Positions 490 to 12,850 of a stretch of 12,850 bases of DNA are shown here, in pieces. Within the stretch, counting starts at the first letter, position 1. Every line of letters begins with the position of its first letter. The notes beneath the pieces were generated by a model. It made no database searches. It saw only the letters and a list, made by a program, of their open reading frames with translations, and was not told where the DNA came from. This stretch comes from Holophagales bacterium. GTDB taxonomy: Bacteria > Acidobacteriota > Holophagae > Holophagales > Holophagaceae. A program made the translations under genes and the position numbers. The DNA lies in the NCBI GenBank assembly GCA_031281385.1, contig JAITFL010000177.1:1-12850 (forward strand), in the 5' to 3' direction.

Positions 490-1956
490 ATGAAAGTACC
501 TTTAGTCGCCATCTGTGGGCGCCCCAATGTCGGAAAGTCCACCCTGTTCAACAGGATCACGCGCAGCCGCGCAGCCTTGGTGCATGACCTGCCGGGGATG
601 ACTAGGGATCGCTCCTATGGGCGGGTCGTCTGCATGGATGGCTCGGGCCAGCCAACAGAGGTGTTCGACCTGATAGATACAGGCGGGCTGGACTTTGAAG
701 GCGACGATGTGATCACGCAAGGCATAACTCGCATGGCGGAGGGGGCCCTAAACGAGGCTCACGTTATCCTGTTGATGGTTGACGGCCACGCAGGTTTTAC
801 AACGGGCGACGCGGAAATCGCCCAAAGGGTAATTCGCATGGGCAAGCCGGCCATGTTGGTAGTGAATAAGTTAGATGGCATGAGGGGCGGTGCCCCAGAT
901 GGGGCCTTCTACGAGCTTGGATTCGAGAATGTCCACTTGGTCAGCTCTGCCCACGGCGCGGGGGTGCCAGACTTGCTGGAATCGGTGCTTGCCGCCCTGC
1001 CATTCCACCGCACACCAGAAGAAGCGGATGAACACGACAAGTCGGACGAACTGCGCTTTGCCATCATCGGTCGGCCCAACGTGGGCAAGTCGAGCCTCAC
1101 CAATTGTCTTTTGGGCTTTGAGCGCAGCTTGGTGAGCGAGGTGGCCGGCACGACAAGGGACGCAGTTGATACTATCTTCAAGCGCGGGGAAAGGGTCTAT
1201 CGCTTGATAGACACTGCCGGGATAAGGCGCAAGGGCAAGACCACCCAAGGGGCCGAGATACTTTCTATCCTAAAGGCAAAGCAGGCGATGGCTAGGGCCG
1301 ACGTCAGCCTGTTGCTGATTGACGCGCTGGAAGGAGTGGCCCACCAAGACGCGGTCATAGCCGGATACGCCCATGACGCGGGCGCCGCAGTGATCTTGGT
1401 GGTCAACAAATGGGACGCGGTTGAAAAGGATGGCTTTACGGCCCTGCAAGTGGAGGAAAACATCAGAAGCGGCTTGGGCTTTTTGCAGCACGCCCCGATG
1501 ATTTTTATTTCTGCCCTCACCGGCCAAAGGGTCTCCAAATTGTTTGGCCTGATAGACGAAGTCGCGGCCTGCCACGCCAAAAGGGTTTCCACGGGCGAGC
1601 TGAACCGGTTTTTGAGGGAGGCGGTGGCCACCATGCATCCCCCGGCTGCGGATGGCAAACTGCCAAAACTGTTTTTTATGACGCAGGTAGGCACCAGGCC
1701 CCCAAGCTTCGTCATCAAGTCCAATACAGACAGCAACATACACTTTAGCTACATGCGTTATCTAGAGAACCGCATGAGGGATGAATTTGGCTTTGCCGGG
1801 ACCCCCATCCGCCTGTCAGTGCACAAATCACACAAGGGCGAAGGCCCGGCCCCAAGAACTGCTAGGGTCAGAAAAATTTTGGACGTTGGTGAAGGGCTGA
1901 AGCCATCGAAAAGGCAAAAGGGGCCATCTTCTAAGCGTAGGCGGGCGGCAAAATAA
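490..1956 (+). CDS. der: Ribosome-assembly GTPase Der (EngA)
   Basis: Der is a double-Era GTPase needed for maturation of the large ribosomal subunit in the cytoplasm. Two G domains are visible. In the first, the P-loop GRPNVGKS is at 10-17, PGMTRD at 35-40, DTGG at 63-66 and NKLD at 126-129. In the second, the P-loop GRPNVGKS is at 194-201, AGTTRD at 219-224, DTAG at 241-244 and NKWD at 306-309. A KH-like C-terminal domain follows (about 375-460, with the typical PPSFVIKSN and GTPIRL stretches), then a short lysine/arginine-rich tail. The 488-residue length is slightly above the usual 430-490 range because of the tail. The ATG at 490 begins at the family's normal N-terminus; the Shine-Dalgarno is weak. 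The stop codon abuts the heptamer repeat at 1955. Confidence 0.97.
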   Translation: MKVPLVAICGRPNVGKSTLFNRITRSRAALVHDLPGMTRDRSYGRVVCMDGSGQPTEVFDLIDTGGLDFEGDDVITQGITRMAEGALNEAHVILLMVDGHAGFTTGDAEIAQRVIRMGKPAMLVVNKLDGMRGGAPDGAFYELGFENVHLVSSAHGAGVPDLLESVLAALPFHRTPEEADEHDKSDELRFAIIGRPNVGKSSLTNCLLGFERSLVSEVAGTTRDAVDTIFKRGERVYRLIDTAGIRRKGKTTQGAEILSILKAKQAMARADVSLLLIDALEGVAHQDAVIAGYAHDAGAAVILVVNKWDAVEKDGFTALQVEENIRSGLGFLQHAPMIFISALTGQRVSKLFGLIDEVAACHAKRVSTGELNRFLREAVATMHPPAADGKLPKLFFMTQVGTRPPSFVIKSNTDSNIHFSYMRYLENRMRDEFGFAGTPIRLSVHKSHKGEGPAPRTARVRKILDVGEGLKPSKRQKGPSSKRRRAAK

Positions 1957-1994
1957 TTGACAATTGACAATTGACAATGGACAATTGACAATGG
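1955..1994. repeat. Tandem heptamer repeat AATTGAC
   Basis: Five consecutive heptamers (1955-1961, 1962-1968, 1969-1975, 1976-1982, 1983-1989) plus a partial sixth (1990-1994). The fourth unit reads AATGGAC and the partial unit AATGG, so there are two T-to-G variants. The array begins inside the TAA stop of der. Each junction creates a TTGACA hexamer and a CAATTG palindrome. It resembles short tandemly repeated sequences found between genes in various bacteria. No role is evident. Confidence 0.9.
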
Positions 1995-2109
1995 TGGATG
2001 CGGCCTACGACCGCGCTGTTTTTAAAATTGGTGGGTGCCTATTGTATGGCAGCTTTAAGAAGTTGGATAAGGAATATGGGCAATGATTGGGGATTTTGCA
2101 AGAGGGTTC

Positions 2110-2175: not shown

Positions 2176-3000
2176 ATGACTGTCACACGGCCCTCCCAAA
2201 TGGTTGGAATATTCGATTCCGGCGTGGGAGGCCTATCTGTATTGAAGGCCGTCAGGGCAGTCCGCAAAGACGTTTGCATTCGCTACGTTGCAGACCAAGC
2301 CAATGTCCCATACGGCCCAAGGCCCTTGGAGGAAGTCAGGGGCTTCGCTTCTGGCATTGCAAAATTCTTGATCTCGGAGCGGGCCGCCTTGGTGGTCGTG
2401 GCTTGCAACGCCGCCTCTGCGGCTGCGCTTTACAGCTTGAGAGAGGATTTTCCAGATACTCCATTTGTCGGCATGGAGCCAGCGGTCAAGCCGGCTGCGA
2501 CCCAGTCAATTTCCGGAGTTGTCGGCGTTTTGGCCACCCCTGCCACTTTTCAAGGCAAGCTATACGCCTCGGTCATCGAGCGCTTTGCGGCCAACGTGAA
2601 GGTCTTGACCAGCGATTGCCCAGGGCTGGTGCAGCGCATCGAGCAGGGCGATTTGGACGGCCCAGCAACAAGGTCAATTTTGGAGCAGGCCCTTGGCCCG
2701 ATGATGGATGCCGGTGCAGACACCATAGTCCTAGGATGCACGCACTACCCCTTTGTAATTCCCCTCGTGCAGTCAATTGTGGGAACAAGGGCAAAGGTGA
2801 TAGACCCCTCCCCTGCCGTAGCCCGGCAAGTTGACAAAATTCTCAAAGAAAACGGCCAGCCCACAGAAACCTGCGGCGAAACGCTGCTATTCACCACCGG
2901 CGATGCAGGGCCTTTTGATTTAGTGGCGTCCTCTTTGCTCGGCGAAACACTTCCGATTTCTTCGCTAAAGTGGGATCGCAGCTCGCTCCTGCCACTCTAA
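2176..3000 (+). CDS. murI: Glutamate racemase MurI
   Basis: MurI interconverts L- and D-glutamate in the cytoplasm to supply D-Glu for peptidoglycan. The family hallmarks are present in order: FDSGVGGLSV at 13-22 (D14, S15), PYGPRP at 45-50, the first catalytic cysteine C77 in VACNAAS (75-81), GMEPAVKPA at 99-107, GVLATPAT at 117-124, and the second catalytic cysteine C188 in GCTHYP (187-192). The 274-residue length is normal. The motif after C77 reads C-N-A where the family usually has C-N-T or C-N-S; A79 therefore lacks the hydroxyl side chain next to the substrate. The start at ATG 2176 has AGAGG directly upstream with very short spacing; the second Met (codon 9, position 2200) has no visible Shine-Dalgarno but would leave the VGIFDSG core intact. 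Confidence 0.94.
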   Translation: MTVTRPSQMVGIFDSGVGGLSVLKAVRAVRKDVCIRYVADQANVPYGPRPLEEVRGFASGIAKFLISERAALVVVACNAASAAALYSLREDFPDTPFVGMEPAVKPAATQSISGVVGVLATPATFQGKLYASVIERFAANVKVLTSDCPGLVQRIEQGDLDGPATRSILEQALGPMMDAGADTIVLGCTHYPFVIPLVQSIVGTRAKVIDPSPAVARQVDKILKENGQPTETCGETLLFTTGDAGPFDLVASSLLGETLPISSLKWDRSSLLPL

Positions 3001-3143: not shown

Positions 3144-4265
3144 ATGGACAACGAACGTGCGACGGTGATGGTGGTTGATGACAACTTGGCTAATTTGATG
3201 GTCGCCAAACTAGCGCTGACGCACTCATATGATGTGTTCACCGTGCCATCCGCAGCAAAAATGTTTGACATGCTAGAGCGAAATAGGCCCAGCTTGATAC
3301 TGCTTGACATTGAAATGCCAGAGACCGATGGCATGGAAGCGCTTTCAACCCTTAAATCCAAACCCGATTTAGCCGACATCCCCGTTATTTTTCTAACCGC
3401 AAAGGGAGACGATGAAAGCGAGCTGCGGGGCCTGGCCCTTGGCGCCGTTGACTATATCTCAAAGCCATTCATGCCTCAGCTTCTCTTGAAGAGGGTTGAC
3501 CTTCACCTCACCATAGAATCTCAGAAACTCCGCTTGGAAGAGCAGGCCAAGAACTTGGAGTCAAGCTTTAGGGCAATCAAGAATTTCAATGAGAACCTGC
3601 AGCAGATGGTCGAGGACAAAACGCGGGAGATAATCAAGCTGCAAAACGCCATCCTGCATGGAGTGGCGAATATCGTGGAGAGCCGCGACGACACCACCGG
3701 CGGACACGTTGAACGTACGCAGCACTACCTCAAGACGCTGATAGGCGGCCTCAACAAATTGAACCTGTACCAAGAAGACATGGTGGGATGGGACATTGAA
3801 TTGATGATCGAATCGTCCCAACTGCACGATGTGGGCAAGATAGCCATTTCAGACAGCATCCTAAAAAAACCCGGGCGCCTCACCAAAGAGGAATTCGACA
3901 CAATGAAAAAGCATGTGGACGTTGGCGTCAACCTCATCGAGAAAATAGAGACCGAAGTCTCTGGCACAGATTTTCTTAGGTACGCAAAAATTTTTGTGGA
4001 AACCCACCACGAAAAATGGGACGGCAGCGGCTACCCCAAGGGGCTTGCCGGCAACGACATCCCCCTGCCGGGCAGGCTGATGGCTTTGGCCGATGTGTAC
4101 GACGCGCTCACCTCTGCCCGGCCTTACAAAGACGCCTTCCCGCCCGATGAGGCCGCCCGCATCATACGGGAGGGGAAAGGGAACCACTTCGACCCAGTCC
4201 TTGTGGACGCATTTGACCAAGTAGCCGACCAATTTGCGTCCATCGCCAGCGAACCCACGAACTAA
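3144..4265 (+). CDS. Gene A: REC-HD-GYP response regulator (cyclic di-GMP phosphodiesterase)
   Basis: A soluble two-domain protein of 373 residues. The receiver domain (about 5-122) has the acidic pair D12/D13, phospho-acceptor D55 in LLDIEMP, T85 and K107 in SKPF. A helical linker (about 125-165) follows, then a complete HD-GYP domain. Metal-ligand residues expected from characterised HD-GYP enzymes are all present: E179, H188, H228/D229, H257, H288/H289 and D317, with the signature HHEKWDGSGYP at 288-298. It should hydrolyse cyclic di-GMP under control of receiver phosphorylation. I chose ATG 3144 because GGAG at 3135-3138 is five bases upstream; a GTG at 3138 in the same frame overlaps that Shine-Dalgarno. 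It heads the seven-gene run. Its partner kinase is plausibly gene G, the only histidine kinase in the window (inference). The HD-GYP part closely resembles that of gene D. Confidence 0.93.
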   Translation: MDNERATVMVVDDNLANLMVAKLALTHSYDVFTVPSAAKMFDMLERNRPSLILLDIEMPETDGMEALSTLKSKPDLADIPVIFLTAKGDDESELRGLALGAVDYISKPFMPQLLLKRVDLHLTIESQKLRLEEQAKNLESSFRAIKNFNENLQQMVEDKTREIIKLQNAILHGVANIVESRDDTTGGHVERTQHYLKTLIGGLNKLNLYQEDMVGWDIELMIESSQLHDVGKIAISDSILKKPGRLTKEEFDTMKKHVDVGVNLIEKIETEVSGTDFLRYAKIFVETHHEKWDGSGYPKGLAGNDIPLPGRLMALADVYDALTSARPYKDAFPPDEAARIIREGKGNHFDPVLVDAFDQVADQFASIASEPTN

Positions 4266-4291
4266 TAACATTGCATGGGATCAGGCCAGAC

Positions 4292-5641
4292 ATGAAAGAA
4301 CTGCTGAGGAGATTTGGGAAGTATGTGTCGCGCAATTTGATGATGATAGTCTATTTTTCTGCCGGCTTCGCAGTTATTGGAATTTCAATTTATAGCCAGA
4401 GGCAGATGGTAACCGTTATTAATTCAAGCGAACACAATTTTAGGGATAAATTGATAGCAGATGCTAAGAGGCTTGCCCCACTGGCTACTCTTGAAGAACT
4501 CAATAATTACCGCGTGCCTGCGGACGCTCAGAGGCCCGAGTGGAAAGCGCTGCGCCAAAAGCTGATCGAATTCGCCGAAGACGCCGAAGTCAAGTATGCC
4601 TATTATCTGCGTGTTGAGGGCGACAAGGTGCAGTACATCGTTGACAATGACCTTGATGAAAATACTAGGTCAGGGATTGACACAGAACCAGAGGAACTCA
4701 GCACTTATATAGACATAAAGCCTACGCTTGAAGGGGAAGCGTGTGTGAGTCAACTCGGGGAGTATGCCAAAGACTGGCCCGGATTGGTCTCGGCATATGT
4801 CCCATTATTCGATGACAACGGACGCGTTGCAGCAATCTGCGGGGTGGACGTAGATGACAGAAACTTGTTGGAAATGCATGCGATGGAACGTTGGCTTATT
4901 GTTATAAAAACATTGGCATTTATCATACTGTATGTAAGCGGCGTTTTCTGTATCGGGGGCTTGAATAAGATGGTCGAGATCAAGATTCGTGAGGTAGTCA
5001 AGCTGCAAAATGCCATCATGCACGGAGTGGCAAATATGGTAGAGAGCCGCGACAGCGGCACTGGAGAACATATCGAGCGCACCCAGCACTACCTAAGGGC
5101 GCTGATAGACAGCCTGAGCAAAATGGGCCTGTACCAAAAAGAAATGAAGGAATGGGACATTGAATTGATGATCGAGTCGTCCCAACTGCACGATGTTGGC
5201 AAAATAGCCATCTCCGACAGCATCCTCAACAAGCCTGGAAGCCTCACCACAGAAGAGTTCGAGATCATGAAGAAACATGTGGAGTCTGGCATAACCATTA
5301 TCGAGAGGATAGAGCAAGATGCCTATGGCACCGATTTTTTGAGGTACGCAAAAATAATCGCGCAGACGCACCACGAAAAATGGGACGGCAGCGGCTACCC
5401 CAAAGGGTTGGCCGGCAGCGACATCCCCCTGCCCGGCAGGCTCATGGCCATAGCCGACATGTACGACGCATTGACCTCCAGCCGTTCCTACAAAGACCCC
5501 TATCCGTCCGAAGAAGCAGCCAGAATCATCAGGGAAGGGCGGGGGACTCATTTTGACCCAGTCCTCGTGGACGCTTTCGAGCAAGTAGCCGACCGATTTG
5601 CTTCAATCGCTCGCCGGCCATCGAATCAACACATCACATGA
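4292..5641 (+). CDS. Gene B: membrane Cache-HD-GYP phosphodiesterase
   Basis: 449 residues in the order TM1 (about 15-35), extracytoplasmic sensor (about 40-200), TM2 (about 203-223), a short helical linker, and HD-GYP (about 237-440). The sensor has features of a single Cache/PDC fold: KYAYYLR at 101-107, YIVDND at 115-120, SAYVPLFD at 167-174 and the closing CGVDVDD at 183-189. All expected HD-GYP metal ligands are present: E251, H260, H300/D301, H329, H360/H361 and D389, with HHEKWDGSGYP at 360-370. It should couple binding of an unknown small ligand outside the membrane to cyclic di-GMP hydrolysis. I chose ATG 4292 by analogy with the paralogues, which mostly start xTG-AAA; a TTG at 4271 is in frame. 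The gap from gene A is 26 bases. Its sensor most resembles that of gene D. Confidence 0.9.
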   Translation: MKELLRRFGKYVSRNLMMIVYFSAGFAVIGISIYSQRQMVTVINSSEHNFRDKLIADAKRLAPLATLEELNNYRVPADAQRPEWKALRQKLIEFAEDAEVKYAYYLRVEGDKVQYIVDNDLDENTRSGIDTEPEELSTYIDIKPTLEGEACVSQLGEYAKDWPGLVSAYVPLFDDNGRVAAICGVDVDDRNLLEMHAMERWLIVIKTLAFIILYVSGVFCIGGLNKMVEIKIREVVKLQNAIMHGVANMVESRDSGTGEHIERTQHYLRALIDSLSKMGLYQKEMKEWDIELMIESSQLHDVGKIAISDSILNKPGSLTTEEFEIMKKHVESGITIIERIEQDAYGTDFLRYAKIIAQTHHEKWDGSGYPKGLAGSDIPLPGRLMAIADMYDALTSSRSYKDPYPSEEAARIIREGRGTHFDPVLVDAFEQVADRFASIARRPSNQHIT

Positions 5642-5656
5642 GGAGATGACATCAAA

Positions 5657-7030
5657 ATGATGAAAGCGTTGCTTGCAAAATTGAAGAAAGGCATCACGCT
5701 CAATTGGTTGCCGTTGACTATTATTTTTGTCGGCATCACCATCGGAGCAGTGTCCATCTATGGCTGGGTAAAAGTCATGGGCATCATAGAGATCAGCCAG
5801 CAAAACATCAGGGGCAAATTGCTGGAAGCCGCAAAAAGGCTTGCCACATTGACCACCGCAGAGGAACTGGACAAATTTCACGAGCCGGCGGATGCCGCGA
5901 AACCCGAATGGAAGGTGCTGCGCCAAAAGCTGATTGTGTTTGCCAAAGAAGCGGATGTCAAATATGCCTATTACATGCGCGTGGTTGGCGACAAGATACA
6001 GTACATCGTTGACAACGACTTTGATGAAAAGACGAGGGTCGGAATTGACAAAGAACTTAAGGAATTACGCGATTATCTGGATTTGACGCCCACGCTTGGC
6101 GGGAAGGCGAGAGTGGCCGAACTGGGCGAGTACGCCCTAGAATGGCCTGGGCTTTGCTCAGCGTACGCCCCCATATTTAACAGCAAAGGGGAAGTAATCG
6201 CAATCAGCGGAGTGGACATAGATGACAGAGAAATATTGGGCATGTTCGAAACCGAGAAGACGATAACTATTTTGCTTGCCTCAATGGTCATCTTCGTGTC
6301 TATCAGCGGCGCGTTTGGTTTCAAGAACCTTAAACGGATGATCAAAGCCAGGACGGAGGAAGTTTCCAAGTTGCAAAATGCCATCGTGCGCGGATTGGCA
6401 AATATGGTGGAGAGCCGGGATGGCGGCACCGGTGGCCACATCGAGCGCACACAGCACTATCTCAGGGCGTTGATAGGTAGCCTTAACAATTTGGGCCTGT
6501 ACCAAGAAGACATGAAAAAATTGTATGTTGCTGGTGGGGGAGGGGACATTGAATTGATGATTGAATCATCCCAACTGCACGACGTGGGCAAAATAGCCAT
6601 TTCAGACAGCATCCTGCAAAAGCCCGGAGGCCTCACCAAGGAGGAGTTCGAGAGCATGAAAAAACATGTGGAAGAGGGTGTAGCCATCTTAAAGAGGATA
6701 GAATCCGAAGTGCCTGGCACTACTTTTTTATGGTACGCCAAATTCTTTGCCGCCTACCACCATGAAAGATGGGACGGCAGCGGCTACCCCAGCGGTTTGG
6801 CCGGCGGCGATATACCGCTTTTAGGCAGGCTCATGGCCATAGCCGATGTGTACGATGCGCTGACTTCTCACCGCCCTTACAAAGAGGCGTTCTCGCACGA
6901 AGAAGCCGTCCGCATCATACGGGAAGGCAGGGGAACCCAATTCGACCCGGCGCTGGTGGACGCTTTCGAACAAGTGGCCGACCAATTTGCTTTGATAGCC
7001 CACCAATCTAGGAATAAATACATCGCATGA
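5657..7030 (+). CDS. Gene C: membrane Cache-HD-GYP phosphodiesterase with a glycine-rich insert
   Basis: 457 residues with the same order as gene B: TM1 (about 19-40), Cache-like sensor (about 44-200), TM2 (about 203-223), HD-GYP (about 240-450). Sensor landmarks are KYAYYMR at 102-108, YIVDND at 116-121 and SGVDIDD at 184-190. The expected metal ligands are intact: E252, H261, H308/D309, H337, H368/H369 and D397, with HHERWDGSGYP at 368-378. Oddity: LYVAGGGG (289-296) stands where the paralogues have a single Trp, a net gain of seven residues in the loop just before the helix leading to the HD motif. Start ATG 5657 has AGGAG at 5641-5645, which overlaps the stop codon of gene B. The sensor is closest to that of gene E. 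Catalysis seems likely, but the insert could alter it. Confidence 0.9.
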   Translation: MMKALLAKLKKGITLNWLPLTIIFVGITIGAVSIYGWVKVMGIIEISQQNIRGKLLEAAKRLATLTTAEELDKFHEPADAAKPEWKVLRQKLIVFAKEADVKYAYYMRVVGDKIQYIVDNDFDEKTRVGIDKELKELRDYLDLTPTLGGKARVAELGEYALEWPGLCSAYAPIFNSKGEVIAISGVDIDDREILGMFETEKTITILLASMVIFVSISGAFGFKNLKRMIKARTEEVSKLQNAIVRGLANMVESRDGGTGGHIERTQHYLRALIGSLNNLGLYQEDMKKLYVAGGGGDIELMIESSQLHDVGKIAISDSILQKPGGLTKEEFESMKKHVEEGVAILKRIESEVPGTTFLWYAKFFAAYHHERWDGSGYPSGLAGGDIPLLGRLMAIADVYDALTSHRPYKEAFSHEEAVRIIREGRGTQFDPALVDAFEQVADQFALIAHQSRNKYIA

Positions 7031-7043
7031 GGCAAAGTCAAAT

Positions 7044-8396
7044 ATGAAAGCCCAGCTTAGGAAACTGAAAAAAACCATCATATCCGACTGGTTACCGTTG
7101 ATCTTTGTTTGTTCCGGCATTGCCGTTCTTGCGGTGTCCATCAAAAGCTGGATGTTGCTCAGGGATCTCATTGCCGCCAACCAACAGGAGGTAAGGGTCA
7201 GATTGCTGGCAACTGCCGAGAAGCTGGCCACATTTACCACAGCAGAGGAACTCAACGGTTATCGCGAGCCTGCGGACGCCGCTAAGCCCGAGTGGAAGGA
7301 GCTTCGCCAAAAGCTGATTAAATTTGCCAAAGACGCCGATGTCAAATATGTCTATTACCTTCGCGCGATTGACGACAAAATTTACTACATCGTTGACAAC
7401 GACATTGACGAGGAGAATAGGGCAGGGATAGACAAAGCGCCTATCGAACTCAGCACATTTTTGGACTTGATGCCCACGCTGCTTGAGGGAAAAGTGTTTG
7501 TGAGCCAACTTGGCCACTACAACAAAGACTGGCCGGGACTCAGCTATGCATACTACCCAATATTCAACAGCGATGGAAGCGTAGCCGCTGTCTGCGGGGT
7601 GGATTTGGAAGACACAGAAATATTGAGAATGCACGCAATCGAGAATAGGCTTGCAATAACAATAGTAGTATTGATAATAATAGTCTTTGTTGGTTCTGGG
7701 TTCGGCTTTAATGTGCTGCAGCGGATGGTCAAGACTAGAACGCGGGAGGTAATCGCACTACAAAACGCCGTCCTGCACGGAGTGGCAAATATTGTTGAGA
7801 GCCGCGACAGTGCCACCGGCGGGCACATCGAGCGCACCCAGCGCTATCTCAAGACGCTGATAAGCGGCTTGGGCAAGATGGGCCTTTACCAAGAAGAAAC
7901 GAAGGGGTGGAACATCGAATTGATGGTGGACTCGTCACAGTTACACGACGTGGGCAAGATAGCCATATCGGACAGCATCCTGAAAAAGCCTAGCAGCCTC
8001 ACCACAGAGGAATTCGAGAGCATGAAAAAGCATGTGGAATATGGCGTAAGCATCATAGAAGGGATAGAGTACGAAGATTCCGGCACTGATTTTCTTAAGT
8101 ATGCAAAAATTTTTGCGGCAACGCACCACGAAAGGTGGGACGGCAGCGGCTATCCCAATGGGCTGGCCGGCAGCGACATCCCCCTACCCGGCAGGCTCAT
8201 GGCCATAGCCGATGTGTACGACGCGCTCACATCCGACCGTCCGTACAAAAAGGCATTTCCCCCGGAGGTGGCGGCCAGTATCATACGGGAGGGGAGGGGG
8301 AGCCACTTCGACCCAGTCCTTGTGGACGTATTCGACCAAGTGGCCGACCAATTTGCTTCGATAGCCCTCCAGCCTATGAATCAAAACATCGCATGA
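7044..8396 (+). CDS. Gene D: membrane Cache-HD-GYP phosphodiesterase
   Basis: 450 residues: TM1 (about 17-38), Cache-like sensor (about 42-200), TM2 (about 203-224), HD-GYP (about 238-442). Sensor landmarks are KYVYYLR at 101-107, YIVDND at 115-120 and CGVDLED at 184-190. The expected metal ligands are complete: E252, H261, H301/D302, H330, H361/H362 and D390, with HHERWDGSGYP at 361-371. It shares with gene B, but not C or E, the pattern ELST..D after the VDND region, VSQLG, KDWPGL and a HAxE stretch before TM2. Start ATG 7044 lies 13 bases after the stop of gene C and has GAGG in the overlapping TGAGG. It is expected to be an active sensor-controlled cyclic di-GMP phosphodiesterase; the ligand is unknown. 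Confidence 0.9.
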   Translation: MKAQLRKLKKTIISDWLPLIFVCSGIAVLAVSIKSWMLLRDLIAANQQEVRVRLLATAEKLATFTTAEELNGYREPADAAKPEWKELRQKLIKFAKDADVKYVYYLRAIDDKIYYIVDNDIDEENRAGIDKAPIELSTFLDLMPTLLEGKVFVSQLGHYNKDWPGLSYAYYPIFNSDGSVAAVCGVDLEDTEILRMHAIENRLAITIVVLIIIVFVGSGFGFNVLQRMVKTRTREVIALQNAVLHGVANIVESRDSATGGHIERTQRYLKTLISGLGKMGLYQEETKGWNIELMVDSSQLHDVGKIAISDSILKKPSSLTTEEFESMKKHVEYGVSIIEGIEYEDSGTDFLKYAKIFAATHHERWDGSGYPNGLAGSDIPLPGRLMAIADVYDALTSDRPYKKAFPPEVAASIIREGRGSHFDPVLVDVFDQVADQFASIALQPMNQNIA

Positions 8397-8407
8397 GGAG
8401 TCCAGCC

Positions 8408-9112
8408 TTGAAAGCGCAGCTTGAAAAAATTAAAAAAAACATTTCATCCAATCGGCTGGCGTTGATTTTTATTTGTTTAAGCATTGCCTTTCTTGCATTG
8501 TCCGTCTATGGCTTTGTGTTGGGTGCGCGCATCATTGACGTCAGCCAACAGAATATCAGAGGCAGGCTGCTGGAAGCCGCCAAAAGGCTTGCCACATTGA
8601 CCACTGCGGAGGAGCTGGACAAATTTCGCGAACCCGCCGATGCCGCCAAGCCCGAGTGGAAGGCTCTTCGCCAAAGGCTGGTTGTATTTGCCAGAGAGAC
8701 CGATGTCAAATATGCCTATTACATGCGCATGGTTGACGAAAAGATACAGTTCATCGTTGACAACGATTTTGATGAAGAGACAAGGGTGGGGGTTGACACA
8801 GAACTTTTCGAAGCCCGCCATTATCTGGACTTGGTGCCTACGCTTGGCTGGAGGGTACCACCACTTGGCGGAGAAGCGATAGTGGCTAAACTCGGCGAGT
8901 ACAGCCATGACTGGCCGGGGCTCTGCGCGGCGTACGCTCCCATATTTGACAGCAATGGAAGCGTGGCCGCAGTATGCGGAGTGGACTTGGACGACACTGA
9001 AATTTTAAGCATGTTCAAAACCGAGCGTACAATATCTATTTTGATGGTCTCAATGGTTATCATTTTGTCTGTTTTCGGCGGGTTCTGCATCAAGACACTG
9101 CGGAGGAGCTAA
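8408..9112 (+). CDS. Gene E: stand-alone TM-Cache-TM sensor without output domain
   Basis: 234 residues matching only the sensor half of genes B-D: TM1 (about 17-38), Cache-like domain (KYAYYMR at 101-107, FIVDND at 115-120, CGVDLDD at 190-196), TM2 (about 208-228), then LRRS and stop where the paralogues continue into the linker and HD-GYP. There is no catalytic domain. I chose TTG 8408 because AGGAG (8396-8400) is seven bases upstream and TTG-AAA matches the xTG-AAA starts of the paralogues; an ATG at 8393 is in frame but lacks a Shine-Dalgarno. A 21-base insertion relative to gene C adds WRVPPLG near residues 148-154 and is bounded by two CTTGGC copies (8843-8848 and 8864-8869). The stop overlaps the ATG of gene F by one base (TAATG). 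It may pair with a paralogue as a regulatory subunit, or be a remnant; the sequence alone does not decide. Confidence 0.85.
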   Translation: MKAQLEKIKKNISSNRLALIFICLSIAFLALSVYGFVLGARIIDVSQQNIRGRLLEAAKRLATLTTAEELDKFREPADAAKPEWKALRQRLVVFARETDVKYAYYMRMVDEKIQFIVDNDFDEETRVGVDTELFEARHYLDLVPTLGWRVPPLGGEAIVAKLGEYSHDWPGLCAAYAPIFDSNGSVAAVCGVDLDDTEILSMFKTERTISILMVSMVIILSVFGGFCIKTLRRS

Positions 9113-10014
9113 TGACCTTGAAAGAGCGGCTTGAAAAAATGAAAAAGGGCGTCAAGTCTAACCCTGTGCGTTCAGCCATTATTTTTTGTGGCATGGCCGT
9201 AATTGCGTTGTCCATTGGCAGCTTTTTGTTGATCAAGGATCTCGTTTACGCCCGCGAAAACACGATGATATCCATACTGTTAGCGTCAATTGTTGCCATT
9301 GTGTTCGTTGGCGGCCTGTTAGGCTCTAGGAACATAGATCGGATGGTTAAGGCAAAGACTAATGATATGTTTAAGCTTCAAAGCGCACTCCTGCAAGGAA
9401 TTACAAATATGATGGAGAATCGTGACGCCGTTACCGGAAGGCATGCCCTCAGCACCCAAGGCTACCTTAGGGCATTGATAGACGGCCTCAACAAAACAGG
9501 TCTGTACCAAGATGAAATGAAGAAATGGGATGTCGAATTGGTGGTAGAATCATCCCAACTGCATGATGTTGGCAAGATAGCCATCTCAGACAGAATCCTG
9601 CAAAAACCCGGACGCTTCACCCAGGAGGAGTTCGAGGCCATGAAAAAGCATGTGGAGTTTGGCGTTGAAATAATAGAAAGGATAGAATCCAAAGTGCCAG
9701 GAACGGATTTTATCAAGTGCGCCAAAATGTTTGTACAGACACACCACGAAAAATGGGACGGCAGCGGCTACCCCAAAGGGCTGACTGGCCGCGACATCCC
9801 TTTGCTGGGAAGGCTCATGGCCATAGCCAATGTGTACGATGCCCTCACTTCCAAGCGCCCATACAAAGAGGCATTCCCGCCAGAGGAAGCCGCCCGCATC
9901 ATACGAGAGGGGAAGGGCAGCCACTTTGACCCAGCCCTCGTGGACGTTTTCGAGCAAGTGGCCGGCCAATTTGCTTCGATTGCCAGGAACCCCATAGACC
10001 AACGCACAGCATGA
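9112..10014 (+). CDS. Gene F: membrane HD-GYP protein that has lost its Cache domain; metal-ligand Asp replaced by Asn
   Basis: 300 residues: TM1 (about 21-42), almost no extracytoplasmic part (about 43-51), TM2 (about 52-72), linker, HD-GYP (about 88-292). Compared with genes C and D, about 155 residues are missing in frame between DLVYA (43-47) and ENTMISILL (49-57), so the two membrane helices are nearly adjacent. In HD-GYP, E102, H111, H151/D152, H180, H211/H212 and the HHEKWDGSGYP signature (211-221) are kept. N240 replaces the Asp that is 28 residues after the second His of HH in the other copies and in characterised enzymes, where it binds metal. The paralogues' HIERTQ is HALSTQ here, losing an Arg (S114). 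Activity may be reduced or absent. Start is ATG 9112, with GGAGG at 9102-9106; TTG 9118 is an alternative that matches the paralogue starts. Confidence 0.87.
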   Translation: MTLKERLEKMKKGVKSNPVRSAIIFCGMAVIALSIGSFLLIKDLVYARENTMISILLASIVAIVFVGGLLGSRNIDRMVKAKTNDMFKLQSALLQGITNMMENRDAVTGRHALSTQGYLRALIDGLNKTGLYQDEMKKWDVELVVESSQLHDVGKIAISDRILQKPGRFTQEEFEAMKKHVEFGVEIIERIESKVPGTDFIKCAKMFVQTHHEKWDGSGYPKGLTGRDIPLLGRLMAIANVYDALTSKRPYKEAFPPEEAARIIREGKGSHFDPALVDVFEQVAGQFASIARNPIDQRTA

Positions 10015-10027
10015 GGCCAGACCAAAA

Positions 10028-12616
10028 ATGAAAATACTGCTCCAGAGATGTAAAAAAATCGTCATTTCACATCCCCTACAGGTGTTTTTTATTTTTTCCA
10101 GCGTCATCGTTTTGGTGGTGTCTGTCTATAGCTGGATAAGAATCACACGCATGATTAACGCCAGCGAAAATTTTTTTAAGGGCAGAATGATTGAAGCCGC
10201 GAAAAGGCTGTCCACGCTGACCACTGCGGAGGAGCTTGACAAATTTCACGTACCTTCTGATGCCGCTAAACCAGAATGGAAGGCGCTGCGCCAAAAATTG
10301 ATTGAATTCGCCGGGGACGCTGACGTCAAGTATGCCTTTTACATGCGCGTAAAAGAAGACAAGATACAGTACATCGTTGACAACGATGATGACGAAAAGA
10401 CAAGGCTCGGAATTGACACAGAGCCTGTATATCTCAACACGCATGCAGACATGAGCCCCATTTTCCAAGGGAAAGCGATGGTGACCAAATTAGGCGATTA
10501 CGCTGTTGGCTGGCCAAAGCTATCTTCGGCCTATGCCCCCATATTCGACCGCGGCGGGAAAGTGGCGGCTATCTGCGGAGTAGATGTAGATGACCAGGAA
10601 CTATTAAACACGCACTATTGGGAGCACTGGTTTGCTGTACTAGAGGTGGTATTGATTGTCGTGGTGGTTGCCAACGGCGCGTACAGCCTTAGAAGATTCA
10701 ACAAAGAGGCTACTTCGGCCAAAGAGGCGAATATGGGGAAAAGCCGCTTTCTTGCCCGCATGAGCCACGAGATCCGCACTCCCATGAACGCAGTCATAGG
10801 GATGAGCGACCTTGCCATCATGAACTATGGAAAGCCCGAAGGGATAGAATACATAGCCAACATAAAGCAGGCAGGCAACAACTTGCTGACCATCATCAAC
10901 GGCATTCTTGACCTTTCTGCCGTGGAATCTGGAAAACTGACGATCAAAAAGTCCCCATATAGAATAGCCCCACTCCTCAGCAACGTTATTACAATCATCA
11001 AGATGAGGCTAGATGACAATGATTCGGTAAAACTATCATTGGACATAGACCCCAATATCCCTGCCGAGCTGATAGGCGATGAGACCCGTGTGGAAGAGAT
11101 ACTCATGAACCTATTGTCCAACGCTGTGAAATACACACAAAAGGGGTTCATCAAGTTTGAGGCCAGAGGCCAGAGCGACATGCGTGGCAATGTTTTGCTT
11201 ACTTTCGATGTGTCCGACAGCGGAATTGGGATCAGGCAGGAAGACTTAGATGCCATTTTTGCCGATTTTTCAAGGATCGAAAACAAGTACACCGTTGGCA
11301 TCCAAGGGACTGGCCTTGGGCTGGCCATCACGCGGGCACTCTGCCGCATGATGGGTGGCGACGTGACGGTGAAAAGCGAATATGAGGTGGGGTCCACATT
11401 TTCCGCTACCATTATCCAAGATGTTTCCGACTTCTCCCCAATGGGGGCATTCGTAGAGAGCAGTGCGCCCATTGATGAAGCAGCAGTACAGGCCGACTTT
11501 TCTGCGCCTGGCTTTCGCGTGCTGATCGTGGACGACATTATGACGAACCTAAAAGTGGCCGAAGGGCTGCTTGCGCCATACCAGATGCAAGTAGATACAT
11601 GCCTCAGCGGCCGCGAGGCCGTCGCCCTTGTCCAACAGAAGGAATACGACCTCGTGCTAGTTGACCACATGATGCCAGATATGGACGGCATCGAAACGGT
11701 GGCCGCAATCAGGGCCCTTGGCGAGAACTTCAAAAAATTGCCCATGGTGGCGGTCACCGCCAGCGTGATGGACGGCATGAAGGACGTTTTTCTCAACAGT
11801 GGCTTTAATGATTATTTGTCCAAGCCGATTGAAATACCAAAACTTAAAGCGTTGCTGGAGAGGGTGGTCTCATCCGAAAATAAGGCCAGCGCAGAAACGC
11901 AGGAAGAGCCAGCCATAACAGAACCGGCTATTCCGCCCAAAAGGCAGACGATGCCTGAGAAACAAGCATTGCCGGATGCGCTGCAGTGGCAAACCCAGCT
12001 AAACCAAATTGATGGGCTGGACACAAAAAAGGGCATGGCCAGCACAGGCGGCTTGCCAAGCGCCTATCGGGCGGTGCTGGAGATATATTGCCGCGACGCG
12101 AGGGAGAGGTTCGGGCTGTTAAACACCGAATTTGCCGAGTCTGACATCAAAAACTTCACCACAAATGTGCACGCCCTAAAAAGTGCTTCCGCCAGCATTG
12201 GAGCAATTGGGCTTTCCAAGGCCGCCGCCGCGCTGGAGGCCGCTGGCCTGCAGGAGGATATGGAATATATTCGGTTGGCTATTGCCGAGTTCAAGGCCGC
12301 CATTGTCCGCGTTGTCGAAAAAATAGAAATCGCCATCGGCGAAGAGAAAAGTAACGGCCCATCTGACGCGGACAAGACAATCAGCATCGAAAACTTGGAC
12401 GCTTCTGTCGCCACGGCCCTCATCGAGCTAAAAAAAGCCCTTCAAAACGAGGATATAGGACGCACCGACCGGCTTTTGGCCGACCTGCCAATTATGCACC
12501 AAGGCCCCGAAGTCGGCATACTTCTGTCGCGGGTCACCGAGCTGGTCCTCACGTCGGATTTCCAAGAGGCCGCAAGGTGCATCGGCGATGCCATCGGCGG
12601 CTCCAGCGATACATAG
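10028..12616 (+). CDS. Gene G: Cache-sensing hybrid histidine kinase (HisKA-HATPase-REC-HPt)
   Basis: 862 residues. The first 225 repeat the module of genes B-E: TM1 (about 17-38), Cache-like sensor (KYAFYMR at 101-107, YIVDND at 115-120, CGVDVDD at 183-189) and TM2 (about 203-220). HisKA follows with phospho-acceptor H247 in MSHEIRTPMN; then the HATPase with N365 in the N box, DSGIG at 397-401 and GTGLGL at 427-432; then a receiver (497-613) with D502/D503, phospho-acceptor D546, T577 and K599; then an HPt domain (about 675-770) with H715 in NVHALKSA. A linker separates the last two domains, and a helical tail (about 785-862) follows. All four phosphorelay stations look intact. The likely outlet is the receiver of gene A (inference). 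It starts 13 bases after gene F, with AGG in the stop-overlapping TGAGG, and ends the run. Confidence 0.93.
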   Translation: MKILLQRCKKIVISHPLQVFFIFSSVIVLVVSVYSWIRITRMINASENFFKGRMIEAAKRLSTLTTAEELDKFHVPSDAAKPEWKALRQKLIEFAGDADVKYAFYMRVKEDKIQYIVDNDDDEKTRLGIDTEPVYLNTHADMSPIFQGKAMVTKLGDYAVGWPKLSSAYAPIFDRGGKVAAICGVDVDDQELLNTHYWEHWFAVLEVVLIVVVVANGAYSLRRFNKEATSAKEANMGKSRFLARMSHEIRTPMNAVIGMSDLAIMNYGKPEGIEYIANIKQAGNNLLTIINGILDLSAVESGKLTIKKSPYRIAPLLSNVITIIKMRLDDNDSVKLSLDIDPNIPAELIGDETRVEEILMNLLSNAVKYTQKGFIKFEARGQSDMRGNVLLTFDVSDSGIGIRQEDLDAIFADFSRIENKYTVGIQGTGLGLAITRALCRMMGGDVTVKSEYEVGSTFSATIIQDVSDFSPMGAFVESSAPIDEAAVQADFSAPGFRVLIVDDIMTNLKVAEGLLAPYQMQVDTCLSGREAVALVQQKEYDLVLVDHMMPDMDGIETVAAIRALGENFKKLPMVAVTASVMDGMKDVFLNSGFNDYLSKPIEIPKLKALLERVVSSENKASAETQEEPAITEPAIPPKRQTMPEKQALPDALQWQTQLNQIDGLDTKKGMASTGGLPSAYRAVLEIYCRDARERFGLLNTEFAESDIKNFTTNVHALKSASASIGAIGLSKAAAALEAAGLQEDMEYIRLAIAEFKAAIVRVVEKIEIAIGEEKSNGPSDADKTISIENLDASVATALIELKKALQNEDIGRTDRLLADLPIMHQGPEVGILLSRVTELVLTSDFQEAARCIGDAIGGSSDT

Positions 12617-12779: not shown

Positions 12780-12850
12780 GGGCCCGTAGCTCAGTCGGTA
12801 GAGCAGCGGCCTTTTAAGCCGTTGGTCGCGCGTTCAAGTCGCGCCGGGCC
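12780..12850 (+). tRNA. tRNA-Lys (UUU), lacking its last bases at the window edge
   Basis: The cloverleaf folds fully. The acceptor GGGCCCG pairs with CGGGCC, with base 72 outside the window. The D stem is GCTC/GAGC. The anticodon stem GCGGC/GCCGT encloses the loop CTTTTAA with anticodon TTT. The T stem GCGCG/CGCGC has a TTCAAGT loop. Seventy-one bases are present; base 72, the discriminator and any encoded CCA lie beyond the window. Confidence 0.95.

What the first reader, a model, noticed from the sequence alone, without database searches (positions are those of the whole stretch)
3144..12616. Seven-gene cyclic di-GMP signalling array built from one sensor and two output types
The run holds five copies of one TM-Cache-TM sensor and five HD-GYP domains in seven co-directional genes with gaps of about 26 bases or less. 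The combinations are REC-HD-GYP, Cache-HD-GYP three times, Cache alone, HD-GYP with no Cache, and Cache-hybrid kinase. There is no GGDEF or EAL partner in the window. Such a dense, degradation-only array suggests several related ligands all lowering cyclic di-GMP, with graded or combinatorial control.
Basis: partly seen in the sequence, partly recalled or inferred. Interest (0 to 1): 0.72.

Follow-up and report, generated by a model that had tools for sequence, protein, structure and literature searches.

The report
Two-component system grown into sensor-enzyme array
In a bacterium related to Holophagales (Acidobacteriota), a two-gene signalling system appears to have fused its own sensor to its own enzyme and copied the fusion several times between the two parent genes, leaving a seven-gene array that should lower the messenger cyclic di-GMP.

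Summary
In detail: seven co-directional genes (3144-12616, gaps 26 to -1 bases) carry five copies of one TM-sensor-TM module and five HD-GYP domains. G1 (REC-HD-GYP) and G7 (sensor-hybrid kinase-REC-Hpt) look like a two-component pair; four kin loci keep that pair next to murI with no gene between. Three genes between them here (G2-G4) are chimeras: G7-type sensor joined to G1-type linker and HD-GYP, at the same place to within 30 bases. Two more copies were split: G5 is sensor only; G6 keeps both TM helices and HD-GYP but lost the sensor and has Asn at metal ligand Asp305. Two orthologues each of G5 and G6 (81-86% identity) keep the same truncations, and all three G6 proteins have the Asn. 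'Degradation-only' is thus partly right: one enzyme is probably impaired, one gene has no output and one is a kinase. Kin genomes encode GGDEF proteins elsewhere. The sensor is probably a remote single Cache (weak sequence support; fold search unavailable). A tandem array of c-di-GMP enzymes has a precedent in Leptospira (PAS-GGDEF). Ligand, activity and subunit pairing are inferred.

The parts
3144..4265 (+). G1: REC-HD-GYP response regulator; its HD-GYP half is the apparent donor type for the array
   Evidence: Pfam Response_reg 8.8e-25, HD_5 1.2e-31; E185 position T, other ligands kept
4292..5641 (+). G2: TM-sensor-TM-HD-GYP fusion (alternative TTG start 4271)
   Evidence: E185 position G, other ligands kept
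4961..4990 (+). fusion point in G2 at 30-base resolution (counterparts: 3597 in G1, 6329 in G3, 7716 in G4, chosen as anchors by a shared motif)
   Evidence: 30-base windows over 180 bases before and 210 after: identity to G1 0.17-0.33 before and 0.60-0.87 after; identity to G7 0.43-0.63 before and 0.17-0.37 after
5660..7030 (+). G3: TM-sensor-TM-HD-GYP fusion (alternative ATG 5657)
   Evidence: orthologue P0002 87%
7044..8396 (+). G4: TM-sensor-TM-HD-GYP fusion
   Evidence: orthologue P0006 93%
8408..9112 (+). G5: sensor only, ends right after TM2 (TTG 8408, or ATG 8393)
   Evidence: orthologues P0019 85% and P0020 83%, both 234 aa with the same end; AlphaFold2 model, mean pLDDT 89.2
9112..10014 (+). 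G6: TM1-TM2-HD-GYP, sensor missing, Asn at the Asp305 position; start overlaps the G5 stop (TAATG), GGAGGAG one base upstream
   Evidence: orthologues P0023 86% and P0024 81%, both with Asn
10028..12616 (+). G7: TM-sensor-TM-HisKA-HATPase-REC-Hpt hybrid kinase
   Evidence: Pfam HisKA 1.6e-13, HATPase_c 4.4e-24, Response_reg 1.4e-22, Hpt 5.6e-9
2176..3000 (+). murI; neighbour of the same pair in 4 of 4 inspected kin loci (but downstream of it there)
490..1956 (+). der (EngA); 81% identical to that of the Holophagales MAG G001

Best explanation
Origin: the array is a two-component system (G7 sensor hybrid kinase, G1 REC-HD-GYP) that gave rise to one-component copies of itself in place. A fusion joined the TM-sensor-TM part of a G7-type kinase to the coiled linker plus HD-GYP of a G1-type regulator, and tandem duplication made G2, G3, G4 and the ancestors of G5 and G6 between the two parents. 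Working (inferred): ligand binding outside the membrane moves TM2, which runs straight into the same coil that couples REC to HD-GYP in G1, and so switches HD-GYP activity without phosphorylation; G7 reads the same kind of ligand and passes phosphate through its REC and Hpt to G1. One stimulus would then set cyclic di-GMP breakdown by a direct and a phospho-route. G5 (sensor, no output) and G6 (output, no sensor, altered metal site), with overlapping stop and start, are most likely regulatory subunits that pair with the full-length copies. Shown: architecture, junction, synteny, conservation of the split pair. Inferred: co-transcription, ligand, activity, phosphotransfer, subunit mixing.
For: Synteny: 4 of 4 inspected kin loci (L001, L042, L043, L044) have REC-HD-GYP + kinase next to murI with nothing between the pair; der lies upstream in 3 of 4, in L001 with another kinase in between. 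Junction: identity to G1 and to G7 switches at one place in G2, G3 and G4, at 30-base resolution. Trees: 15 array-type sensors plus kinase sensors G7 and P0004 form one clade, 100/100, inside a set made mostly of kinase sensors; array HD-GYPs fall in a 20-row group with G1-type REC-HD-GYPs, 90/92. One clade of array HD-GYPs (p-AU 0.456) and one clade of array sensors without G7/P0004 (p-AU 0.081) are not rejected. Orthologues elsewhere are closer than paralogues here (G3-P0002 87%, G4-P0006 93%; full-length G2, G3, G4 among themselves 59-62%). G5 and G6 orthologues keep the same truncations. dN<dS in all 20 paralogue pairs, those with G5 and G6 included. The G6 model has one helix, residues 51-104, from TM2 into HD-GYP (pLDDT block means 65-73 there).
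Against: G7's sensor lies inside the array clade (joined to the G3/G5 group at bootstrap 81-90), so the donor need not be the present G7 and later exchange is possible. Several forks of the HD-GYP tree are open, and G3's group branches below G1's there. The G2-like P0031 is only 70% identical to G2, so not every copy has a close orthologue. murI is upstream here and downstream in kin, so the locus was also rearranged. No genome of the window's species is held. No expression, ligand or enzyme data. In PmGH, D305A left residual activity (PMC4159591 passages), so G6 may still work.
Confidence: 0.7

Rival explanations
1. Reverse order: sensor-HD-GYP one-component genes came first, and the kinase (G7) and the response regulator (G1) were made from them.
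For: G7's sensor lies within the array sensors; the widely held view that one-component systems are older (recalled).
Against: This sensor sits on kinases in L001-L004, L042 and L043, and REC-HD-GYP lies beside the kinase in L001, L004, L042, L043 and L044. In the sensor trees the four kinase sensors L001, P0011, L042 and L043 branch just below the array clade, which itself has 100/100; the fork that holds them has 89/95 and 92/96.
Confidence: 0.08
2. One reading: each copy senses a different related ligand and all lower cyclic di-GMP, giving graded or combinatorial control.
For: Sensor paralogues are 47-67% identical, with sensor dN 0.21-0.43 against HD-GYP dN 0.14-0.22; G3 and G4 are kept distinct in another lineage.
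Against: 58 of 63 invariant columns lie at G2 residues 46-199; sites such as Y109, R112, D123, W174, Y181 and D198 (G5 numbering) are invariant or at least 90% kept in 36 family members; G5 has no output and G6 is probably impaired.
Confidence: 0.25
3. G5 and G6 are decaying leftovers of a broken duplicate without function; the working system is G1-G4 and G7.
For: Complementary losses; Asn at Asp305; in this window G6 also has Ser where both orthologues have Arg ('HALST' against 'HALRT' and 'HAMRT').
Against: Near-equal lengths and the same truncations in orthologues at 81-86% identity; dN<dS; GGAGGAG just before the overlapping TAATG.
Confidence: 0.25
4. Several independent sensor/HD-GYP fusions made the array, not one fusion plus duplication.
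For: P0010 and P0013 carry this sensor family fused to HD-GYP with a linker about 25 residues longer (read by eye). Their HD-GYP halves are not one clade with the array: P0013 added, p-AU 0.004; P0010, P0013 and L045 added, p-AU 0.00018 (post hoc).
Against: G2, G3 and G4 share one junction at 30-base resolution; one clade of array HD-GYPs is not rejected.
Confidence: 0.12

Closest known systems
RpfC/RpfG-type two-component systems (hybrid kinase + REC-HD-GYP; recalled)
   Same: G7 + G1: hybrid kinase with REC and Hpt beside a REC-HD-GYP regulator; RpfG has Gly at the E185 position (PMC4159591 section 11), as have G2 and G3
   Different: RpfG also has Phe for H189, which all five window domains keep as His; different sensor; three fused sensor-HD-GYP genes and a split pair lie between the partners
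Seven in-tandem PAS-GGDEF paralogues of Leptospira interrogans, LIC_11125-LIC_11131 (passage of PMC12943098)
   Same: A tandem cluster of seven paralogous sensor-plus-cyclic-di-GMP-enzyme genes
   Different: Cyclases, not phosphodiesterases; the passage gives one architecture and mentions no parent two-component pair
HD-GYP structures 4mcw (PmGH), 4r8z (PA4781, name recalled) and 5z7c (3'3'-cGAMP-specific phosphodiesterase 3)
   Same: Sequence match of G4 (the one window protein searched) over its HD-GYP domain, E 1.8e-39, 1.4e-41 and 4.2e-29
   Different: PmGH has the E185 carboxylate, missing in all five window domains; G6 also lacks D305
Unconventional HD-GYP Bd1817 (described in PMC4159591)
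   Same: Precedent for an HD-GYP protein without phosphodiesterase activity
   Different: Bd1817 lacks the GYP tyrosine; G6 keeps GYP and changes a metal ligand

Membership tests
HD-GYP phosphodiesterase | HD_5 domain above curated cut-off | tested here: met
   five of five genes, 103.5-114 bits against 27.2
HD-GYP phosphodiesterase | HHExxDGxGYP motif and seven shared metal ligands, G1-G4 | tested here: met
   mapped on PmGH through the alignment and the residues named
HD-GYP phosphodiesterase | HHExxDGxGYP motif and seven shared metal ligands, G6 | tested here: not met
   motif kept, six of seven ligands kept, D305 is N
HD-GYP phosphodiesterase | hydrolysis of cyclic di-GMP | not testable with these tools
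   no assay
E/D-T-G (three-metal) HD-GYP subgroup | carboxylate at E185 | tested here: not met
   T, G, G, A, V in G1, G2, G3, G4, G6
Cache superfamily (single Cache) | match to a Cache profile above cut-off | tested here: not met
   no hit at E<=1 for window sensors; 2 of 36 members hit sCache_3_3, best E 4.7e-4
Cache superfamily (single Cache) | long N-terminal helix plus PAS-like sheet between two TM helices (recalled) | tested here: inconclusive
   G5 model: helix 21-67, short helices, strands 107-114, 117-123, 177-185, 191-200, last helix 202-238; mean pLDDT 89.2; fold search switched off
Two-component system | hybrid kinase next to a REC regulator | tested here: met
   G7 and G1 by Pfam, though six genes' length apart here; side by side in L001, L042, L043, L044 by profile and in L004 (its REC judged by eye)
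Two-component system | phosphotransfer G7 to G1 | not testable with these tools
   no assay
RpfC/RpfG | RpfC-type multi-TM fatty-acid sensor (recalled) | not tested
   no comparison with RpfC made; not filed as a member

The most novel reading that the evidence does not exclude
The array encodes subunits of mixed membrane enzymes: a conserved sensor-only protein (G5) and a conserved sensor-less HD-GYP with an altered metal site (G6) pair with full-length sensor-HD-GYP copies, so that one operon builds receptors with different numbers of sensors and active sites, all derived from one two-component system that still works beside them.
Probability: 0.3. Interest if true: 0.7.

Novelty: new variant of a known kind. 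Interest (0 to 1): 0.52.

Why it matters
Both parents and the fused offspring sit side by side with a readable junction. That makes the passage from two-component to one-component signalling directly testable in one locus. It also offers a natural test of whether a coil evolved for REC control can be driven by a transmembrane sensor, and of what conserved sensor-only and sensor-less copies do.

Tried and rejected
Own-genome search: none is held. Viral contigs: 204 stretches matched a pattern, none encodes a relative. Fold search of the sensor model: switched off. PDB profile search with the sensors: only short or weak matches, best E 0.024 over 23 residues (6ywh, multi-sensor hybrid histidine kinase). 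NCBIfam (five window proteins and one of L001): no hit for G5; among the rows shown (best 25 of 97 for G1 and of 147 for G7; all rows for G2 and G6) none reaches its cut-off. Clade test A was badly posed (it left G5 outside its own group) and was replaced by those. That P0002, P0006, P0019 and P0031 share a contig (10532) is inferred from equal contig lengths; likewise P0003/P0005/P0032 (24526), P0007/P0030 (8027) and P0020/P0023 (2783). Runs of HD-GYP genes across genomes were not counted: the match list was cut, as was that (120 of 6930 shown).

Rows left out: P0001, P0018 and P0034 (the window's own) from both trees; 64 of 136 extracted HD-GYP domains used; L005-L007 were not put into the sensor tree, and the sensors of L044 and L045 did not pass its cuts; L049 (very long branch) left out of the second sensor tree. 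Of 10 kin genomes with a sensor match (of 60 searched) the pair's locus was inspected in 4 (G001, G005, G006, G007); of the other six only L015 (G061) was annotated.

Literature: nine term searches, of which I saw the listings (20 of 243 papers); none of the titles or abstract starts shown names such an array. Passages seen: PMC4159591 (and its section 11), PMC12943098, PMC9239204.
Full report
Observation. Seven co-directional ORFs run from 3144 to 12616 with gaps of 26, 18, 13, 11, -1 and 13 bases. Pfam gives REC-HD-GYP (G1), HD-GYP in G2, G3, G4 and G6, and HisKA-HATPase-REC-Hpt in G7; G5 has only one chance-level hit. The N-terminal modules of G2, G3, G4, G5 and G7 are one family: 63 of 241 aligned columns are invariant, 58 of them at G2 residues 46-199. 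Upstream lie der and murI; a tRNA-Lys(TTT) follows.

Where it comes from. No genome is held for the window. Its Der is 81% identical to that of the MAG 'Holophagales bacterium isolate Mcx344_bin57' (L001, genome G001), against 45% or less, some over part of the protein only, in the three other genomes searched. That such isolate codes mean termite gut is recalled, not tested.

Ancestral state. In L001 the order is der - another hybrid kinase - REC-HD-GYP - sensor kinase - murI; in L043 and L044 der - REC-HD-GYP - kinase - murI; in L042 REC-HD-GYP - kinase - murI with other genes upstream. So 4 of 4 inspected kin loci hold the pair with nothing between. In L044 the kinase has lost most of its sensor. 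L004, a Deltaproteobacteria MAG, also has HD-GYP gene and sensor kinase side by side. The window differs by five genes between the two partners, and by murI lying upstream.

The fusion. In 30-base windows anchored at a shared motif (3597 in G1; 4961, 6329, 7716 in G2, G3, G4), identity of G1 to these three genes is 0.17-0.37 before the anchor and 0.60-0.87 after it, save one window of 0.47 at an insertion in G3; for G6 it is 0.17-0.37 before and 0.50-0.77 after. Identity of G7 to G2, G3 and G4 is 0.40-0.73 before and 0.17-0.40 after. The three genes are thus G7-type sensors with G1-type linker and HD-GYP. The sensor trees put 15 array-type sensors and the kinase sensors G7 and P0004 in one clade (100/100); the rows that branch below are kinase sensors (P0021, without a domain call, apart) and the two other fusions P0010 and P0013. 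The HD-GYP tree puts array HD-GYPs with five G1-type REC-HD-GYPs (20-row group, 90/92, some forks open). One clade of array HD-GYPs is not rejected (p-AU 0.456), nor one clade of array sensors without G7/P0004 (0.081). Against a simple picture, G7's sensor lies inside the array clade, so the donor may have been an earlier copy. P0010 and P0013 have a linker about 25 residues longer (by eye). Adding P0013, or P0010, P0013 and the L045 fusion, to the clade of array HD-GYPs is rejected (0.004 and 0.00018; post hoc), so such fusions happened more than once. For the sensor halves, adding P0010 and P0013 is rejected without G7/P0004 (0.004) but not with them (0.213).

Age and constraint. Orthologues elsewhere are closer than paralogues here: G1-P0030 97%, G2-P0007 85%, G3-P0002 87%, G4-P0006 93%, G5-P0019 85%, G6-P0023 86%, against 59-62% among full-length G2, G3 and G4. 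The G2-like P0031 is only 70% identical to G2. The array, split pair included, so appears older than these lineages, without recent homogenisation. Pairwise dN is below dS in all 20 paralogue pairs examined (10 sensor, 10 HD-GYP).

The split pair. G5 ends right after TM2; P0019 and P0020 have 234 residues and the same end. G6 keeps TM1 and TM2 but no sensor; P0023 and P0024 share this. All three G6 proteins have Asn for the Asp that aligns with D305 of PmGH. Of 135 aligned stretches with a residue there (taken from the best hits of two searches plus the window), four have Asn: these three and one stretch of P0131. In PmGH, D305A markedly reduced but did not abolish hydrolysis (PMC4159591 passages). 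So G6 is predicted impaired, not proven dead. G5's stop and G6's start overlap (TAATG), one base behind GGAGGAG.

Chemistry. None of the five HD-GYPs has the E185 carboxylate (T, G, G, A, V), so a two-metal centre is likely by the argument of PMC4159591 section 11. G1-G4 keep the other seven ligands. The substrate could be cyclic di-GMP or a relative; this was not tested.

Network. Four kin genomes (G001, G005, G006, G007) have 5, 4, 17 and 3 GGDEF matches, 0, 0, 2 and 0 EAL and 11, 4, 13 and 4 HD_5. These genomes are of unstated completeness (1.3-2.7 Mb), so absences are soft. Each has an open frame that joins a remote relative of this sensor (E 8.4e-9 to 3.6e-7) to GGDEF. HD-GYP is then the only phosphodiesterase class found in three of them, and a cyclase with a similar sensor lies elsewhere in all four.

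Sensor fold. The AlphaFold2 model of G5 has mean pLDDT 89.2 with a long helix, a PAS-like set of strands and a final helix, which fits a single Cache. Profile evidence is weak and fold search was off. The family looks rare: 17 proteins, the window's own included, in about 5.8 billion at E<=0.001 in a word-based search, and 7 loci in genome contigs in a pattern-based one.

Mechanism and standing. Shown: architecture, junction, synteny, conserved split pair. Inferred: ligand-driven TM2 motion through the shared coil, the phospho-route from G7 to G1, and subunit mixing by G5 and G6. The G6 model shows one helix from TM2 into the HD-GYP at modest confidence. A tandem array of c-di-GMP enzymes is known (seven PAS-GGDEF genes in Leptospira, PMC12943098 passage). 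No array like this appears in the listings of nine term searches, which cover open-licence papers only. Verdict: real; a new variant of a known kind; of moderate interest because the evolutionary path is readable.

Noticed in passing
window 1955-1995: Short near-tandem copies of TTGACAATTGACAATGG-like sequence just after der, which also give sigma-70-like matches; not analysed.
   Followed up: no
L044:974-3094 (-): In kin genome G005 the orthologous kinase lost most of its sensor and keeps a short N-terminal stretch before the kinase domain, much as G6 lost its sensor.
   Followed up: partly
L001:5564-8701: A further hybrid kinase (1045 aa) lies between der and the response regulator in the Holophagales MAG; not at that place in the window, L043 or L044.
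   Followed up: partly
P0025-P0029 and P0033: Proteins with two HD-GYP stretches in a row; the second ones have diverged metal-site motifs and form their own clade, 100/99.
   Followed up: partly
L045:6890-8164 (-): Kin genome G007 has another sensor-HD-GYP fusion at a contig end with a distant sensor; its HD-GYP groups with P0010, 100/98.
   Followed up: partly
window 12780-12850: tRNA-Lys (anticodon TTT) right after the array, running past the window's end.
   Followed up: no
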